Shown piece after piece: positions 12,300 through 20,369 of a DNA stretch of 36,525 bases (positions are counted from its first letter, which is position 1; every line of letters starts with the position of its first letter). The notes under the pieces are model-generated. The model made no database searches and was not told the origin of the DNA. It saw only the letters and a program-made list of their open reading frames with translations. A program made the position numbers and the translations under genes. Source of the DNA: Dysgonamonadaceae bacterium (GTDB taxonomy: Bacteria; Bacteroidota; Bacteroidia; Bacteroidales; Azobacteroidaceae); contig JAIRVZ010000050.1 of the NCBI GenBank assembly GCA_031253625.1, positions 1-36,525 of the forward strand, written 5' to 3'.

Positions 12300-13844
12300 C
12301 TATTTCGCCATTTGATTGACTGCCTCTGCCAATCGGATAAATTCTGTGCGATAGCCATATTCGTCGTTATCAATACCTTCTTTGGCAAGATTGATTACTT
12401 TTGAATAAGTGGCGTCTCCTTTGAATTCAGAATCCCTTAACAGTTGTCCGAACATAGCTACCGACATGGCAAATTTGAAATCTTTAGAAATAACTTGATC
12501 GTTATCTGTGATTGAAGAAATAGGAACTTCTAATTTTTTACTCTCATTTTCTCCCGGTTTCTTGTAACGCAACTTGACTGTCAACATTTCGGAAGAATAG
12601 TTTTCAGCGTTTGCTTTTTCTTTTTGATATTTCAAATCGTCGATTTTCCCTTTGTATGGATTTTCTACTCCCACAGGAATTATTTCATAAAGAGCGGTTA
12701 CCGTATGACCGGACCCGAGTTCTCCGGCATCTTTTTGGTCGTCGTTGAAATCTTCATTGTTTAACAAGCGGGTTTCGTATCCGATTAAGCGATAATAATT
12801 TACATGGGTGGGATTGAATTCGATTTGTAGTTTTACATCGTTTGCAACGGTGTGCATTGTGCTTCCGAATTCTTGTACCAATACTCTATTGGCTTCTTGA
12901 ATATTGTCGATATAAGCATGATTTCCATTCCCTTTTTGAGAAAGTGTTTGCAGCTTATTATCTTTATAATTTCCCATTCCATAACCCAAAATCGTAAGAT
13001 ATACGCCTGTTTCCCTTTTTGTTTCTATCAGTTTTTCCAATTCGGAAATAGAGGAAACGCCTACATTAAAATCTCCGTCGGTGCATAAAATAATTCGGTT
13101 ATTTCCTTTGGGAATAAAATTCTTTTCGGCAACTTTATAGGCTAATTGTATTCCCGCTCCACCGGCAGTCGAGCCGCCTGAACTCAAATTATCAATGGCC
13201 TCGAGGATTTTCTGGCGGTCTTTCCCTTTTGTGGAAGGCAATACTTCGCCTGCCGCGCCTGCATATACAACAATGGCAACTTTGTCTTTATCTCTTAAAT
13301 TATTTACTAAAAGTTTGAGAGAAGATTTTACTAAGTCTAAACGAGTCGGCCCATACATGGAACCGGAAACGTCAATCAGGAATACAAAATTAGAATATGG
13401 TAAGTTTTCTGTAGGGATTTCTTTGGCTTTAATGCCTATTTTGACGATTTTATGTTTGTCTTGCCATGGACAAGGCGCAACTTCTGTCGTGATATTTACC
13501 GGATGTTCTCCTGTCGGTGAAGGATAATCATAACTGAAATAATTAATCAGTTCTTCTGTTCGTATCGCATCTTTAGCAGGTATTTTTCCTTGATTGATAA
13601 TACGTCTCATATTTCCATAAGAGGCAACGTCTACATCCAATGAAAATGTTGATAGCGGATTTGTTTGAGCAGACAAGAACCGGTTTTCGTCGAAAGTTGG
13701 GTATTCTTCGCTGTTTTCTTCATCAAAAACAGCGATGCTCATACATGCTGCATCATAGCTTTTATAACGAGCATTGCCACAGGAACTTAAAAATGCAAAT
13801 GTGCCGATTGCTAAGAAACTTAAAAGGAAATTAATGTTTTTCAT
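12300..13844 (-). CDS. YfbK-type von Willebrand factor A lipoprotein
   Basis: A 514-residue envelope protein. The N-terminus is a lipoprotein signal (FLLSFLAIGTFAFLSSC, lipid-modified Cys22). Residues about 60-150 match the domain that precedes VWA in YfbK proteins (FSLDVDVASYGNMRR). The VWA domain then has the metal-site motif DVSGSM at 158-163, plus TDGDFNVG and SSGGSTAGG later. The C-terminal third (GYETRLLNNEDFNDDQKDAG onward) is the DUF3520-type end. Such proteins bind partners through a Mg2+-dependent site; the true ligand is unknown. It is one of two VWA proteins in a minus-strand cluster with TonB. The ATG at 13844 follows a good -7 element. Confidence 0.9.
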   Translation of the reverse strand: MKNINFLLSFLAIGTFAFLSSCGNARYKSYDAACMSIAVFDEENSEEYPTFDENRFLSAQTNPLSTFSLDVDVASYGNMRRIINQGKIPAKDAIRTEELINYFSYDYPSPTGEHPVNITTEVAPCPWQDKHKIVKIGIKAKEIPTENLPYSNFVFLIDVSGSMYGPTRLDLVKSSLKLLVNNLRDKDKVAIVVYAGAAGEVLPSTKGKDRQKILEAIDNLSSGGSTAGGAGIQLAYKVAEKNFIPKGNNRIILCTDGDFNVGVSSISELEKLIETKRETGVYLTILGYGMGNYKDNKLQTLSQKGNGNHAYIDNIQEANRVLVQEFGSTMHTVANDVKLQIEFNPTHVNYYRLIGYETRLLNNEDFNDDQKDAGELGSGHTVTALYEIIPVGVENPYKGKIDDLKYQKEKANAENYSSEMLTVKLRYKKPGENESKKLEVPISSITDNDQVISKDFKFAMSVAMFGQLLRDSEFKGDATYSKVINLAKEGIDNDEYGYRTEFIRLAEAVNQMAK

Positions 13845-13998: not shown

Positions 13999-14802
13999 TT
14001 ATTGCAGCTTAAATCTAACCGGAATTGTGTAATAAACCGGCACCGGAGTACCGTTTTGTTTTCCGGGAATCCATTTAGGCATTGATTTTACTACTCGAAC
14101 CGCTTCTTTATCGCAGCTTGGGTCAAGAGAGCGAAGTATGGTTACATCTGTGATATCCCCTTTTTTGTCAACAACAAAGCGAAGTACAACGTTTCCTTGA
14201 ATCCCTTGCTCTTGAGCGATCACAGGATATTTGATATTTCTGCTTAAATAACTCATCAGTTCTTTCTCCCCTCCCGGAAAGGTTGGCATTTCTTCAACAC
14301 GAATGAACGGAGTTTCTGTTATTTTGGGATCGACAATCACTGTAGGAGTAAAGTCGGTTCCACCGGTAACGCCTTCTCTATTAATAGTTGAAATTCCTAC
14401 ATTCGGATTTGACAACTCGATTTGAGTTAGCATTTGTTCTGTTTCTGCAACTTGATCGTCAGGTCTGATAACAGGAGGCGTGAATTTTACGAGCGGTGCC
14501 GGATTGACGATGGGTTCAGGTTGCTTAACATCAATGATTTTGTTTTCTGGAATGTCAACAGTAATTAATTTTATTCTTCCAGTATCATCAGGGTTAACAA
14601 CCTCTGTTTCTGCAGGAAACAGTTTGCTCATCACTGTTGGAAATACAGAAAATGCTACACACAAAAATATCACGATAGCTAAAGACGCTAAGTGTCTTTT
14701 TGATGATGTTTTACGGATTTTATATGCTCCGTATTCTTGGTTTTTATTGGCAAATACCAAATCAAGCCATTCTTTTGAAGTTAAATCAATTGTTCGTGCC
14801 AT
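13999..14802 (-). CDS. tonB: TonB-family energy transducer
   Basis: TonB passes proton-motive-force energy from the inner membrane to outer-membrane transporters. The 267-residue protein begins with the cytoplasmic segment common in Bacteroidota TonB (LTSKEWLDLVFANKNQEYG). One membrane helix follows at about 38-58, then a proline-rich periplasmic linker. The C-terminal TonB domain (169-267) shows EMPTFPGGEKELMSYL, NIKYP, GNVVLRFVVDKKGDI and SMPKWIPGKQNG. That domain is about 70 % identical to the C-terminus of the upstream VIT-VWA lipoprotein. ExbB and ExbD are not in the window. It lies 112 nt after the VIT-VWA gene, with a 16-bp perfect hairpin and one copy of a 44-bp repeat in or at that gap. 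Confidence 0.93.
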   Translation of the reverse strand: MARTIDLTSKEWLDLVFANKNQEYGAYKIRKTSSKRHLASLAIVIFLCVAFSVFPTVMSKLFPAETEVVNPDDTGRIKLITVDIPENKIIDVKQPEPIVNPAPLVKFTPPVIRPDDQVAETEQMLTQIELSNPNVGISTINREGVTGGTDFTPTVIVDPKITETPFIRVEEMPTFPGGEKELMSYLSRNIKYPVIAQEQGIQGNVVLRFVVDKKGDITDVTILRSLDPSCDKEAVRVVKSMPKWIPGKQNGTPVPVYYTIPVRFKLQ

Positions 14803-14842: not shown

Positions 14843-14891
14843 CCGATAACTCTTTTATCGTTTTTCATACTGCAAATAAAAGAGTTATCGG
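14843..14891. repeat. Perfect 16-bp inverted repeat upstream of tonB
   Basis: CCGATAACTCTTTTAT (14843-14858) and its exact complement (14876-14891) are separated by 17 nt. On the transcribed minus strand no T run follows, so it is not a classical terminator. It lies between the VIT-VWA gene and tonB and could slow transcription, stabilise mRNA ends or bind a regulator. Confidence 0.75.
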
Positions 14892-14895
14892 GAAG

Positions 14896-14939
14896 AAACT
14901 ATGTTTCCGAAATGCTACTTAGTGTTATCAAGTGTTATC
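14896..14939 (-). repeat. 44-bp direct repeat, copy A
   Basis: It matches copy B (17351-17394) at 40 of 44 positions in the same orientation. Both contain GCTACTTAGTGTTAT and an internal AGTGTTAT tandem. Copy A overlaps the last codons and stop of the VIT-VWA gene and lies about 95 nt upstream of tonB. Confidence 0.8.
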
Positions 14940-17299
14940 GGGATATTTTCAATTAGTTTGAATCTAACCGGCAATGTAAAATAAGCCGCTACAGGGTTGC
15001 CGTTTTGTCTGCCAGGAATCCATCTTGGCATCGACTTAAGCACCCTTATAGCTTCTGCATCGCAACTTGGTTCAAGAGAACGCAATACAGTTATATCCGT
15101 TACATCTCCGTTTTTATCAATTATAAACCGTAAAACAACAGTTCCTTGAATGCCGGCTTCTATTGCCGCTATTGGATATTTCAGGTTTTCGGCTAAATAT
15201 TTCATTACCTCTTTTTCTCCTCCGGAGTACATCGGCATTGATTCTACATGTGTAAATGCCATTTCAGCCGGTGCAGGCGCAGCAGCTAAGACAGGAGAAC
15301 AGTCGGCAATAACAGCACAGCTTTCAGTTCTACCTTCCATATTTGTCGTAATTGCCGTAGGTGTATATTTGACCGTAGCTTTTAATTCGGGTTGATGATA
15401 TTCTCCTCCTTGTAAATCATTGTCTATGGCAAGGAAAGAAGTATAAGCTGTTAACAAATTATATTTCAATCCTAATCGAGTAACTTCCTGTTTGCTTTTT
15501 TCTGATATTCCTTCATGCCCTCCCCAACCATCTGAACCGGAAACAAAACAGAATGCATAATCGCTCAAGAATTTGATTTTATTTCTTGCCCAGAGATAAC
15601 GCAATGCTTCGTTTTTCGAATGAACGATTTCTTTAGTCGGAATACTTCTTTGAAAATATCCTTGTGCCGTTTTTCCGGAAAGTGTGATGGTGCCTTTCGG
15701 ATTTCCCTTGTATTTCCCAAAAACAACTATCGGCCGTTCTGTAAACATATTGGGTATTTTTTGAGGATAAGTGTCATATACTTCCATTCCGCCCCAATTG
15801 ATGGAAATATCACTTAATAAAGGTTGTGAAATTGTTTTAATCAGATGTTCCCCAACTTTTTCGGCTTCGGTTTTATTTTCTATAATAAATGCTTCGGAAG
15901 CTCCGGCATAAGCCATTCCTTCTATCAGATAACGATTAACGGACGAACCTATTCCCAAAGGAATAAAATTCGCTTTATCCACATTATCGGCAATCAGTTG
16001 GAAGGCTTTCGACTCGATGGTAACATACCCGTCGGTAGCTATAATAAAAGTGCGTGCATAGTCTTCCAGTTCCGGGTCTTTATACGAAAAAGCTTTTTTG
16101 AGTGCGGGATAAAGCTCCGTGCCTCCGCTGCCATACTGGTTACTAATAAGTCGTGTGGCTTTGTCGATATTCTCTTGAGTGGCAGGCAACGAACGGTCAG
16201 ACATCATCGCATTGTTGCTTTCAAACAATAATACATTGAAACGGTCGGCCGGTTTCAGGGAAGAAATCAGTTTTCGCAGAATGGTTTTGCTTATTTCTAA
16301 CGGAAAGCCCGACATGGAACCGGAAACGTCTACAATAAAAATATATTCTCTCGGCATGATTGCCGTTTCTGCCGCTTTCTTAGGCGGTTGCATCATCATT
16401 AAGAAAAACTTTTCGTTACCGTGATTGTATAATGTCAGTCCACTTTCGACGGTTCCGCCTTGTAATCCGTATTTCAAAATAAAATCTGCTCCGGTTTCGG
16501 TTCCTTTGGGGTCATTTAGGGTTATTTTCATCAATTTATCTGATATTCTTGACATTTTTATTTGATGCGATGCCGCAACATTTTGAACCGGAACAGGACT
16601 TTCAATCGTAACATCGACATCAAATGCCGGTTTTTCCATAAAAAATGTTTGAATTATGGATCGCGTTGCAAGTTCTTCTTCCTGATTAGAATACCTCGGT
16701 CCTACGGCGGTGGGATAAACGAATTCGTATTCGCGATCTCTGTATTCCAACAATTCGGTATAAAACATATTGACTTTGATGGTATCTCCGGGACGGATAT
16801 TGGCTACTTCCATTTTAAAAACATTCGGACGGTCTTGCTCCAACAGCGTAGCTCGTTTGCCTTCTTTCCTCGCTTCTTCAAATTCAGTGCGGGCTTTTTC
16901 CCGTTCTTTCACCTGTGCATGGATAACGCGCTTGCCTATGGTCATGTCTAATCCATAAACCGCTGCCCTTGTCGAACCGGGAAAAATATAAATAGCATCG
17001 TAGATTCTTTGGCCGGTGTTTACATACACTTGTTCGATCGTTACGTTAGCAATCGAACCGGCAATTTTCACATCGGCTTTTGTTGATTGGAGAGATAAAG
17101 CAGTCCGTGAAGGATGATTGCTTTTGACAAAGAAATAAGGAGAACATGATTTTGTTCCATCGCCGGGGATTACATGATGCAAATCTTCTTGAGGCTCATA
17201 TTCATACTCTATCGTTTGAGCCGCACTTGTGTTTGTGTTTTGTCCACAAGAGTATGTAGCGAAAATCAACAGCATACTCAAAAAAATACCTTTCTTCAT
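14915..17299 (-). CDS. Lipoprotein with VIT, VWA and TonB C-terminal domains
   Basis: A 794-residue predicted lipoprotein (FLSMLLIFATYSC, Cys18). Residues about 53-185 form a VIT domain (TALSLQSTKADVKIAG, EQDRPNVFKMEVANIRPGD). A VWA domain follows from about 316, with the metal-site motif DVSGSM at 324-329, GSGGTELYPAL and ATDGYV. After a linker, residues 683-785 are a complete TonB C-terminal domain (SMPMYSGGEKEV, NLKYP, GTVVLRFIIDKNGD, SMPRWIPGRQNG). VIT-VWA proteins resemble inter-alpha-trypsin inhibitor heavy chains. Adding a TonB domain to a lipid-anchored protein without a transmembrane helix is unusual, because it cannot couple to ExbBD in the normal way. It may bind TonB boxes or peptidoglycan, or sense TonB partners. 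Function unproven. Confidence 0.9.
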   Translation of the reverse strand: MKKGIFLSMLLIFATYSCGQNTNTSAAQTIEYEYEPQEDLHHVIPGDGTKSCSPYFFVKSNHPSRTALSLQSTKADVKIAGSIANVTIEQVYVNTGQRIYDAIYIFPGSTRAAVYGLDMTIGKRVIHAQVKEREKARTEFEEARKEGKRATLLEQDRPNVFKMEVANIRPGDTIKVNMFYTELLEYRDREYEFVYPTAVGPRYSNQEEELATRSIIQTFFMEKPAFDVDVTIESPVPVQNVAASHQIKMSRISDKLMKITLNDPKGTETGADFILKYGLQGGTVESGLTLYNHGNEKFFLMMMQPPKKAAETAIMPREYIFIVDVSGSMSGFPLEISKTILRKLISSLKPADRFNVLLFESNNAMMSDRSLPATQENIDKATRLISNQYGSGGTELYPALKKAFSYKDPELEDYARTFIIATDGYVTIESKAFQLIADNVDKANFIPLGIGSSVNRYLIEGMAYAGASEAFIIENKTEAEKVGEHLIKTISQPLLSDISINWGGMEVYDTYPQKIPNMFTERPIVVFGKYKGNPKGTITLSGKTAQGYFQRSIPTKEIVHSKNEALRYLWARNKIKFLSDYAFCFVSGSDGWGGHEGISEKSKQEVTRLGLKYNLLTAYTSFLAIDNDLQGGEYHQPELKATVKYTPTAITTNMEGRTESCAVIADCSPVLAAAPAPAEMAFTHVESMPMYSGGEKEVMKYLAENLKYPIAAIEAGIQGTVVLRFIIDKNGDVTDITVLRSLEPSCDAEAIRVLKSMPRWIPGRQNGNPVAAYFTLPVRFKLIENIPITLDNTK

Positions 17300-17350: not shown

Positions 17351-17394
17351 AAACTATGTTTCCAAAACGCTACTTAGTGTTATTTAGTGTTATC
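17351..17394 (-). repeat. 44-bp direct repeat, copy B
   Basis: Partner of 14896-14939. It lies about 52 nt upstream of the VIT-VWA start. In the same frame as copy A it also reads Asp-Asn-Thr-Lys-stop, as if it were the relic of another gene end. A shared CTGCAAAT lies 18-21 nt away on the side of the downstream gene in both copies. Confidence 0.8.
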
Positions 17395-18304: not shown

Positions 18305-19990
18305 TTATTCTTTTCCGACTCTTCCTACGCCATTCATAGATGCTTGCCTGACTTGAGGTTCGTTTTTATAGGTGATTTTTCCAACACCATCTAATGAGGC
18401 ATCTAAGAAAACGATAGGATTACTTCTGATAGAACCGACACCTTCTAATTGAGCGGTTAATGAGTCGACTTCCAAATTGAAAGAATCTATTTTCCCGGCT
18501 CCCTCAAGTCTGATGAAGGCTTTTTCTGCTTTTCCTCCAAGTGTGGCTTTTCCCACTCCTTCCAAATTGCAGGTCAGGTTTTGAACGAATAAACTATCTG
18601 CCTGGAAACTTCCGATACCTTCTACTTTAATATTGAAATTATCGGTTGTTAATTTATTGTCAATGAATACTTTATTTGCACCGCTCATTCTGATTCCGGT
18701 AATTTCCGGAGCCGTAATGGTAATAATCAGCTTACTCCTTTGGAAATTGATGTGATCTTTTATTCCGAGTCTCAATTCATCATTTTTCAAATTCCAATTA
18801 ATTTTGTCGATAATATTGTCATCGCCATTAATTAAAATTTGCGGAGTGTCTCCCTTGCGAACTCTTACTGTTGCAACTAAATTATCGTCGATTTTCAATT
18901 GAGAAAATGCCGGTAAATCTTCTACGCGATCGGCTATAATTCCTGAACCGCTTACAATATTATTATCACAGAAGATATTCCATTTGTTATGATATTGAGA
19001 AGATAATTCATTATGTATTATAATCCTGCCTGAGAATATAAGTACAATTAAAGCTATGATCCAAACAATAAATGCGCTCCATCTAAAAGTTTTGCTCAAT
19101 GGTTTTACCTTTTTGTTTGATGAAAACAGCGCATATATAATTGAAAACAGAGGAATTCCTATTACCAAAGTTAACGCAATGAGACTTGCAATCGGATGTA
19201 TTGTTGTTATTCCGTTCCAATCAAAACCTAAAAAATCAAGAGAGGAGAATAAAACGCTGCTGAAACCGAAAATCAAAGATATCAATACGATAAAAACAAT
19301 ACACAGAGCAAAAAGCAACGGTATCCCGATAAGGCATCCAAAACATCCTAATCCAAACTTAAAGAATGAAGATAAGTATCCGCCGTTATTGCTGCTTGCT
19401 GCTGTGGTTCCAGAAACCGTTTTACCAATATTTTCAAGCGTAACAGCCTCTCCTCGCATTTCAAGTTTTTGACTTGCAGTGATCGCCGCCGGCATGAAAA
19501 TCCAAAGTGCCAGATAAGTCAGTAACATAAAAGGTATAGGAAGAAGGATCAGTATGAAAAAAATAATGCGAACTGGTAGCGGATCCCAGCCAAAATAAGC
19601 CGCGATTCCGGAGCAAACTCCTCCCAATATTTTTTCATCAATATTCCTGTAAAACCTTTTTTTAGGTTTTCCCTGATTGATTGTGGCTTTGTTTGAGTTT
19701 GAATTTGAATTCTCGGATTTGAAATCTTCATCTCCAAAATCTTCAGGTTTACCCATTCGCTCGATAACGATTTCAACTTGTTCGATAGAAATTACGTTGT
19801 AGCCTAAGCGGATTCTTTCCTGAAAAAGTTCTTCGATACGGGCTTCGAAGTCGCGAATGATTTCTGCCGAATCTTGTTCGTTTCTAAAGTATGATTTCAA
19901 ATTTTGAAGATAATTTTCCAATAACTCGTAAGCGTCTTCATCTATATTGAAAACTCTTCCATTTAAATTGATGTTCAATGTTTTTTTCAT
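18305..19990 (-). CDS. PspC-domain membrane protein with C-terminal GIN/adhesin-like repeats
   Basis: A 561-residue protein. Residues 1-90 form a charged helical cytoplasmic domain (IRDFEARIEELFQERI). A PspC domain spans about 111-170 (YRNIDEKILGGVCSGIAAYF with its membrane helices), and further membrane segments lie around 215-315. The C-terminal part from about 350 is a beta-helix of the DUF2807/head-GIN type (VEDLPAFSQLKIDD, then repeated GVGK and GAGK turns), predicted extracytoplasmic. PspC/GIN proteins paired with a PadR gene are a known Bacteroidota arrangement, thought to sense envelope state. The upstream padR gene ends 11 nt before this start, so the pair is an operon. The ligand is unknown. 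Confidence 0.9.
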   Translation of the reverse strand: MKKTLNINLNGRVFNIDEDAYELLENYLQNLKSYFRNEQDSAEIIRDFEARIEELFQERIRLGYNVISIEQVEIVIERMGKPEDFGDEDFKSENSNSNSNKATINQGKPKKRFYRNIDEKILGGVCSGIAAYFGWDPLPVRIIFFILILLPIPFMLLTYLALWIFMPAAITASQKLEMRGEAVTLENIGKTVSGTTAASSNNGGYLSSFFKFGLGCFGCLIGIPLLFALCIVFIVLISLIFGFSSVLFSSLDFLGFDWNGITTIHPIASLIALTLVIGIPLFSIIYALFSSNKKVKPLSKTFRWSAFIVWIIALIVLIFSGRIIIHNELSSQYHNKWNIFCDNNIVSGSGIIADRVEDLPAFSQLKIDDNLVATVRVRKGDTPQILINGDDNIIDKINWNLKNDELRLGIKDHINFQRSKLIITITAPEITGIRMSGANKVFIDNKLTTDNFNIKVEGIGSFQADSLFVQNLTCNLEGVGKATLGGKAEKAFIRLEGAGKIDSFNLEVDSLTAQLEGVGSIRSNPIVFLDASLDGVGKITYKNEPQVRQASMNGVGRVGKE

Positions 19991-20001
19991 GACCGTACAG
20001 T

Positions 20002-20337
20002 TTATTTGTTATTTATACCTTTTAAATGATTAATTGTGTTGTTTATATCCGCCCACGCAATTTCAAGTTCGGATAAAAAGAGAGTACCTTCTTCGGTTAG
20101 AGCATAATATTTTCGTGGAGGACCTTGGGTCGACTCTATCCATTCGTATTTAAGCAGACCTGAATTTTTTAGTCTTGTCAATAACGGATAAAGTGTGCCC
20201 TCTACAACAATCAATTGGGCTTCTTGCAACTCCTGTATAATATTGGTTGCGTAAGCCGGTTCTTTTTGGAGAATTAAGAGTATGCAATATTCCAATACTC
20301 CTTTTCTCATTTGAGATTTTACATTGTCTTCTTTCAT
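20002..20337 (-). CDS. PadR-family transcriptional regulator
   Basis: A 111-residue winged-helix repressor. The segment MRKGVLEYCILLILQ, then AYATNIIQELQEAQLIVVEGTLYPLLTRLKNSGLLKYEW, and GPPRKYYALTEEG are the standard PadR helices and wing. The C-terminal helix is for dimerisation. I use the ATG at 20337; the TTG at 20364 overlaps the -7 element. Members of this family usually repress their own operon and the adjacent membrane or efflux gene, here the PspC/GIN gene 11 nt downstream. The inducer is unknown. Confidence 0.92.
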   Translation of the reverse strand: MKEDNVKSQMRKGVLEYCILLILQKEPAYATNIIQELQEAQLIVVEGTLYPLLTRLKNSGLLKYEWIESTQGPPRKYYALTEEGTLFLSELEIAWADINNTINHLKGINNK

Positions 20338-20361
20338 TGTAGTAATCTTAATATGACAATG

Positions 20362-20369
20362 CAAAGATA
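20362..20369 (-). promoter_or_regulatory. -7 promoter element of the padR operon
   Basis: Minus strand TATCTTTG, a full match to TAnnTTTG. The -33 region is poor (ATTG at a 21-nt spacing). It lies 25 nt before the padR ATG, consistent with autoregulation close to the start. Confidence 0.5.

What the first reader, a model, noticed from the sequence alone, without database searches (positions are those of the whole stretch)
14915..17299. VIT-VWA-TonB_C fusion in one lipoprotein
Seen: lipobox Cys18, VIT domain about 53-185, VWA with DVSGSM at 324-329, and a full TonB C-terminal domain at 683-785. A TonB domain normally sits after a membrane helix coupled to ExbBD; this protein appears to be lipid-anchored and has none. 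I infer a decoy, adaptor or sensor of TonB-dependent transporters, or a peptidoglycan-binding use of the fold.
Basis: partly seen in the sequence, partly recalled or inferred. Interest (0 to 1): 0.7.

Follow-up and report, generated by a model that had tools for sequence, protein, structure and literature searches.

The report
VIT-VWA envelope protein with captured TonB domain
A bacterial envelope protein related to the human inter-alpha-trypsin heavy chain ends in a copy of the cell's own TonB receptor-docking domain; relatives swap this end for a whole receptor, a barrel or a wall-binding domain and often sit next to a sigma/anti-sigma switch, so it is probably the periplasmic part of an undescribed envelope signalling module.

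Summary
In detail: one uninterrupted 794-aa minus-strand ORF carries VIT (70-180), VWA with a complete MIDAS (320-477) and a true TonB_C domain (705-782), all well above Pfam cut-offs. AlphaFold2 gives an ITIH1-like core, a ~47-residue flexible linker and a TonB fold closest to receptor-bound TonB.

The fusion is not unique. This VIT-VWA family spans several phyla, and 52 of 72 C-terminal tails match TonB_C (Bacteroidota type or AgmX/PglI type). Other relatives end in LysM domains, a small beta-barrel, or a complete SusC-type TonB-dependent receptor. The window's core nests inside the receptor-fused clade, while its TonB_C is closest to its own genome's TonBs, one of which (13999-14802) lies next door. 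A duplicated 44-nt leader suggests local capture of that domain.

New here: the family is often encoded beside an ECF sigma/anti-sigma pair (32 of 84 loci, about 3 expected). In all 12 such TonB_C-type loci the anti-sigma also ends in TonB_C. The window's genome lacks that anti-sigma and no sigma gene lies near, so its copy is an orphan.

Best reading: a periplasmic docking partner of TonB-dependent, ECF-linked envelope signalling. A peptidoglycan anchor is the main rival. No function is shown.

The parts
14915..17299 (-). VIT-VWA-TonB_C protein P0001, 794 aa
   Evidence: open frame; Pfam
17246..17248 (-). Cys18 of a lipobox-like signal (FATYSC)
   Evidence: pattern match only; not conserved in relatives
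16760..17092 (-). VIT domain, residues 70-180
   Evidence: PF08487 1.6e-33; 1.1e-34 in genome search
15869..16342 (-). VWA domain, residues 320-477, with MIDAS DVSGSM (324-329), T394, D423
   Evidence: PF00092/PF13768; invariant residues
15269..15409 (-). flexible linker, residues 631-677
   Evidence: pLDDT under 50
14954..15187 (-). TonB_C domain, residues 705-782
   Evidence: PF03544 74.7 bits; TonB fold; nearest to the genome's own TonBs
13999..14802 (-). adjacent full TonB (P0002, 267 aa): N-terminal membrane helix, Pro-rich linker, TonB_C 189-266
   Evidence: 58% identical to the P0001 tail over 132 aa
17351..17394 (-). 44-nt leader repeat upstream of the VIT-VWA gene
   Evidence: 91% identical to the second copy; only two copies in the genome
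14896..14939 (-). 44-nt leader repeat upstream of the TonB gene; overlaps the VIT-VWA stop codon
14843..14891 (-). 17-pair hairpin between the VIT-VWA stop and the TonB start
   Evidence: -24.5 kcal/mol for the 111-nt stretch, z -4.8
12300..13844 (-). YfbK-type VWA protein (P0003), likely lipoprotein, third gene of the cluster
   Evidence: PF12450, VWA, PF12034; relatives carry CarboxypepD_reg and TonB-box-like segments

Best explanation
P0001 is an exported, probably periplasm-facing member of a VIT-VWA family whose C-terminus is an exchangeable envelope-attachment module. In the TonB_C form the ITIH-like VIT-VWA head (with an intact metal site) is tethered by a flexible linker to a TonB_C domain that docks, without energy input, on TonB boxes of outer-membrane receptors. 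It places the VWA head beside receptors that TonB also engages. In relatives this unit is the periplasmic partner of an ECF sigma/anti-sigma switch whose anti-sigma bears the same TonB_C domain, so sigma release would depend on receptor occupancy. The window's copy took its TonB_C from the genome's own TonB and has no linked sigma pair, keeping only an adjacent TonB. Shown: domains, predicted folds, module swapping, tree positions, gene association. Inferred: TonB-box docking, signalling, periplasmic orientation.
For: 1) True TonB_C by sequence and fold. 2) Receptor link: eight named loci (L063-L069, L072) plus L046 (same Dysgonomonas gene as L067) carry the same core between a CarboxypepD_reg domain and the plug/barrel of a SusC-type receptor, which puts it in the periplasm. 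The window's core nests in that clade at SH-aLRT 98. 3) The window's TonB_C is 67% and 65% identical to its genome's exbB-linked TonB and neighbouring TonB, against at most 53% to other fusions, and groups with them at 95/92. 4) ECF sigma within 4 kb in 32 of 84 loci against about 3.4 expected. All 12 TonB_C-type loci with ECF have an anti-sigma with C-terminal TonB_C. Such an anti-sigma occurs in 11 of 12 genomes with this protein, but was confirmed in only 5 of 395 sampled Bacteroidota genomes. 5) A separate TonB adjoins the gene in L091 (truncated), L106, L120, L123, L131 and the window. 6) TonB_C-to-TonB-box contact is the documented role of the domain, by strand pairing with beta-3 (PMC3602595).
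Against: No interaction was or could be tested. The window has no ECF or anti-sigma gene nearby and its genome lacks the anti-sigma type. Many AgmX-type members have a diverged TonB_C, and two relatives have LysM instead, so TonB-box docking cannot be essential to the whole family. The lipid anchor is weakly supported. Anti-sigma-TonB_C proteins also exist in genomes without a close VIT-VWA relative (5 found).
Confidence: 0.45

Rival explanations
1. Wall-anchor reading: the TonB_C domain is a peptidoglycan attachment module that fixes the VIT-VWA head in the envelope, unrelated to receptors.
For: In the same family the C-terminus is replaced by LysM domains in L084 and L135, by apparent small beta-barrels in L147-L150, and the core is a full-length relative of TIGR03788, a family named as sortase targets. 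All are ways to attach a protein to the envelope. AgmX-type tails have a diverged TonB_C.
Against: The window's TonB_C is a recent copy of a transport TonB, not a LysM-like domain. Receptor fusions and the adjoining TonB genes point to receptors. L135 also keeps a TonB-box-like stretch LQEVVVTAIG.
Confidence: 0.3
2. Decoy: P0001 competes with TonB for TonB boxes and lowers uptake through some receptors.
For: Its TonB_C is up to 67% identical to the exbB-linked TonB and has no membrane helix for coupling to ExbBD.
Against: A pure decoy would not need a conserved 570-residue VIT-VWA core with an intact MIDAS, nor explain the sigma/anti-sigma association.
Confidence: 0.1
3. It is an unusual energy-transducing TonB.
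For: Full TonB_C domain; TonB gene next door.
Against: No N-terminal cytoplasmic/membrane part of the Bacteroidota TonB type; the exbB-linked TonB is elsewhere (C59).
Confidence: 0.03
4. The fusion is an assembly chimera of a VIT-VWA gene and a TonB gene.
For: The genome is in 135 contigs, no same-genus genome was available, and the closest relative (L062) lacks TonB_C.
Against: Uninterrupted frame, the same architecture in many independent genomes, similar GC in core and tail (0.408, 0.411).
Confidence: 0.05

Closest known systems
TIGR03788 marine proteobacterial sortase target protein
   Same: The VIT-VWA core aligns over nearly the whole model (393 bits, residues 72-654).
   Different: Below the family cut-off (551.65 bits); ends in TonB_C, not a sorting signal.
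VIT-VWA proteins ending in an AgmX/PglI tail (NCBIfam NF033768)
   Same: Same core and same order, C-terminal TonB_C-like domain; 52 of 72 tails match this model.
   Different: In the window the domain is of the Bacteroidota TonB type and derives from the genome's own TonB; AgmX tails are diverged.
FecI-FecR-FecA type TonB-dependent trans-envelope signalling
   Same: ECF sigma, anti-sigma and an outer-membrane receptor in one locus; the receptor-fused VIT-VWA clade has FecR and ECF genes.
   Different: In TonB_C-type loci the anti-sigma has a zinc-finger motif and ends in TonB_C, and the partner is a VIT-VWA protein, not a receptor with a signalling domain.
GltG/GltJ of Myxococcus gliding motility
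   Same: TonB_C domains used outside nutrient transport, proposed to contact TonB-box outer-membrane proteins (PMC5349195).
   Different: GltG/GltJ have a membrane helix and couple to a TolQR-type motor; P0001 has no such helix.
Inter-alpha-trypsin inhibitor heavy chain 1 (6fpy)
   Same: Fold of the VIT-VWA core over about 600 residues.
   Different: Only 18% identity; no TonB_C; secreted animal protein.

Membership tests
TonB energy transducer | C-terminal TonB_C domain | tested here: met
   PF03544 74.7 bits; TonB fold
TonB energy transducer | N-terminal inner-membrane helix that couples to ExbB/ExbD | tested here: not met
   only a signal sequence, then a soluble VIT-VWA core
TonB energy transducer | function with ExbB/ExbD | not testable with these tools
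   the exbB-linked TonB of the genome lies on contig C59
TIGR03788 marine sortase target | score above the family cut-off | tested here: not met
   393.1 against 551.65 bits
TIGR03788 marine sortase target | C-terminal sorting signal | tested here: not met
   the C-terminus is TonB_C followed by 12 residues, IENIPITLDNTK
VIT-VWA (ITIH-like) proteins | VIT followed by VWA with a complete MIDAS | tested here: met
ECF sigma/anti-sigma linked VIT-VWA module (described here) | sigma and anti-sigma genes next to the VIT-VWA gene | tested here: not met
   met in 32 of 84 family loci but not in the window; anti-sigma type absent from the genome
ECF sigma/anti-sigma linked VIT-VWA module (described here) | TonB gene adjoining the VIT-VWA-TonB_C gene (recurrent, not universal) | tested here: met
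   P0002 adjoins in the window; also L091 (truncated), L106, L120, L123, L131
Bacterial lipoprotein | lipobox cysteine | tested here: inconclusive
   Cys18 fits a PROSITE-like pattern; not conserved; no LipoP/SignalP available

The most novel reading that the evidence does not exclude
A class of trans-envelope signalling in which an anti-sigma factor, a TonB and a VIT-VWA protein each carry a TonB_C domain and compete for, or jointly sense, the same receptor TonB boxes, so that receptor engagement is read out by an ECF sigma factor without a receptor signalling domain. The receptor-fused VIT-VWA proteins would be the one-chain version of the same system.
Probability: 0.25. Interest if true: 0.78.

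Novelty: new variant of a known kind. Interest (0 to 1): 0.52.

Why it matters
TonB_C is treated as the business end of energy transducers. Here it appears as a portable docking module, captured from the cell's own TonB and exchanged in one protein family with a whole receptor, a barrel or a wall-binding domain. The association with anti-sigma factors that bear the same domain suggests that Bacteroidota may sense receptor engagement in a way not described in the papers I could search. It gives the large, functionally obscure set of bacterial VIT-VWA proteins a testable role, and Bacteroides and Dysgonomonas strains carry the receptor-fused form, so the question is open to genetics.

Tried and rejected
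Unique fusion: rejected, 52 of 72 tails match TonB_C. Single origin of all fusions with the window included: not favoured; the window's TonB_C groups with its genome's TonBs and none of 200 bootstrap trees makes the fusion domains one clade. The short domain (104 columns) leaves many forks unresolved; no AU test was run. Lipoprotein as a conserved family trait: rejected. Anti-sigma-TonB_C being exclusive to VIT-VWA genomes: rejected, five others found. Mobile element as source of the 44-nt repeats: no support, only two copies in the genome. A repeat-based capture model fits better but is inference. Full-text searches for VIT/VWA with TonB, AgmX/PglI, and ECF with vault protein inter-alpha-trypsin found no paper on this protein family; the ECF classification paper I tried by DOI is not held. 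One hand-made residue comparison was out of register by one; the BLASTP alignment in the same call (58% over 132 aa) is used instead. The Foldseek search with the full-length model shows only the core among the 50 listed matches, so the TonB_C domain was folded and searched alone.

Full report
WHAT IS THERE. The ORF at 14915-17299 lies on the minus strand and encodes 794 aa without interruption. Pfam finds VIT at 70-180, VWA at 320-477 and TonB_C at 705-782, all above their curated cut-offs. The MIDAS residues D324, S326, S328, T394 and D423 are invariant in 46 aligned proteins. An AlphaFold2 model (pLDDT 77) shows a compact core that matches inter-alpha-inhibitor heavy chain 1 over about 600 residues (6fpy, E 5.6e-36), a disordered linker (631-677) and a small C-terminal domain. 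Folded alone with an alignment (pLDDT 90.7), that domain is a TonB C-terminal domain; the best match is TonB bound to the receptor FoxA (6i97_D, rmsd 1.5, 32% identity).

EXPORT AND ANCHOR. Cys18 in FATYSC|GQ fits a PROSITE-like lipobox pattern, but only 7 of 90 proteins examined match it, several at implausible positions, and most relatives have an ordinary signal peptide. The lipid anchor is therefore possible in this protein but is not a family trait. No LipoP or SignalP was available.

THE FAMILY IS BROAD AND ITS C-TERMINUS IS EXCHANGEABLE. A search of named genomes with the VIT-VWA core returned the 80 best loci of 527 confirmed relatives, from Bacteroidota, Thermodesulfobacteriota, Nitrospirota, Myxococcota and other phyla. 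Scanning 72 C-terminal tails, 52 match Pfam TonB_C and 52 match the AgmX/PglI model. A profile comparison of the Bacteroidota and AgmX-type tails gives 96% probability of homology. Two Microscillaceae proteins (L084, L135) end in LysM domains and one protein (L133) in ankyrin repeats. Four from a Bacteroidota-wide sample (L147-L150) end in what look like small outer-membrane beta-barrels; Pfam recognises this for L148 only. Seven Bacteroides/Dysgonomonas proteins plus one Bacteroidales protein (L063-L069, L072) continue into a complete SusC-type TonB-dependent receptor. For L046, the same gene as L067, this was verified domain by domain: CarboxypepD_reg, VIT, VWA, plug and SusC/RagA. In that order the VIT-VWA part must face the periplasm, given the known topology of such receptors. 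The core is also a full-length relative of TIGR03788, the marine proteobacterial sortase target, though below its cut-off. In a sample of 395 Bacteroidota species, 30 had a match at 1e-40 and nine, the window included, a strong near full-length one. The family is thus widespread but patchy.

WHERE THE WINDOW'S TONB_C CAME FROM. On the core tree the window and a Candidatus Symbiothrix protein without TonB_C (L062) sit inside the receptor-fused clade (SH-aLRT 98 and 98; quick tree). On the domain tree the window's TonB_C groups with three TonB_C domains of its own genome, including the adjacent TonB P0002 and the TonB next to exbB (bootstrap 95, SH-aLRT 92; 65% and 67% identity, against at most 53% to other fusions). 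A 44-nt leader, 91% identical and present only twice in the genome, lies upstream of both the VIT-VWA gene and P0002. The two TonB_C coding stretches (271 nt, 71% identical) follow in the same order. The second leader overlaps the VIT-VWA stop codon. The simplest history, inferred and not shown, is a tandem duplication of leader plus tonB followed by replacement of the front of one copy by VIT-VWA. Gene conversion among the genome's TonB_C domains is an alternative.

GENE NEIGHBOURHOOD. In the window the next genes downstream are the full TonB P0002 and a YfbK-type VWA protein. YfbK relatives elsewhere in Bacteroidales carry CarboxypepD_reg domains and, in some, TonB-box-like or plug-like segments read by eye, so both VWA proteins belong to families that associate with receptor parts. 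Across the family an ECF sigma gene lies within 4 kb in 32 of 84 loci, against about 3.4 expected from a density of 4.8 sigma-70 region 2 genes per Mb in the window's relatives. Even at 15 per Mb about 10 would be expected. The background comes from Bacteroidota and the loci are related, so the p-values are only indicative. All 12 TonB_C-type loci with an ECF gene have an anti-sigma that itself ends in TonB_C; the set shares a zinc-finger-like H-x3-C-x2-C motif. In genomes bearing the TonB_C-type protein, 11 of 12 have such an anti-sigma, usually linked. Among 395 sampled Bacteroidota genomes 36 gave a match to its N-terminal part, and 5 of the 30 loci fetched carry TonB_C. Counting the unchecked remainder generously as 8 in all gives a Fisher p of 8e-16 before any correction for kinship. 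A separate TonB gene adjoins in L091 (frame truncated), L106, L120, L123 and L131. The receptor-fused clade has ECF and FecR genes instead. The window's genome lacks this anti-sigma and no ECF gene lies near the window's gene, so here the protein is an orphan of the module.

MECHANISM. The C-terminus looks like an envelope-attachment module. For the window's version the most likely target is the TonB box of outer-membrane receptors, because the domain is a close copy of transport TonBs, because the sister clade is physically fused to a receptor, and because TonB_C-to-TonB-box strand pairing is the established interaction (PMC3602595). The VIT-VWA head would then be held beside receptors, and in relatives with the sigma pair the anti-sigma TonB_C would read the same interface. 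The docking and signalling steps are inferred. The main rival is a wall anchor, supported by the LysM variants and by the relationship to sortase targets.

NOVELTY. The parts are all known domain families, and databases already hold models (TonB family, AgmX/PglI) that match many relatives. I found no paper describing the module, but only an open-access library was searched and most subscription journals are missing. I file it as a new variant of a known kind: a probable trans-envelope docking/signalling protein.

Noticed in passing
14896-14939 and 17351-17394: A 44-nt direct repeat, found only twice in the whole genome, lies upstream of both TonB_C-bearing genes; it may be a shared leader or promoter.
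   Followed up: yes
14843-14891: A 17-pair hairpin (z -4.8) between the VIT-VWA stop and the TonB start, without a clear T-run; terminator, processing site or regulatory element.
   Followed up: partly
L046 5411-10279 (minus); L063-L069, L072: VIT-VWA inserted between the CarboxypepD_reg domain and the plug of a SusC-type TonB-dependent receptor, with ECF and FecR genes nearby.
   Followed up: yes
L091 4172-5440, L106 4197-5462, L070 5095-6204, L128 5201-6139 (all minus): Anti-sigma factors that end in a TonB_C domain.
   Followed up: partly
L214, L219, L221, L225, L228: Anti-sigma-TonB_C proteins beside ECF genes in genomes without a close VIT-VWA relative; partner unknown.
   Followed up: no
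L135 6890-9379: Microscilla VIT-VWA-LysM protein with a TonB-box-like stretch LQEVVVTAIGKR before the LysM domains.
   Followed up: no
L062 4334-6511: Candidatus Symbiothrix VIT-VWA protein, closest to the window's, without TonB_C and with no obvious signal peptide; two nearby genes look by eye like a MotA/MotB-type pair.
   Followed up: partly
L007 637-1764 (G000 contig C82): A protein of about 375 aa with three TonB_C domains in tandem.
   Followed up: no
L004 (G000 contig C19): A protein whose N-terminus looks like a BlaR1/M56 membrane protein and that ends in TonB_C; the domain groups with the genome's TonBs.
   Followed up: no
18305-19990 and 20002-20364: PspC/LiaI-like membrane protein with a DUF2807 domain next to a PadR regulator.
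   Followed up: no
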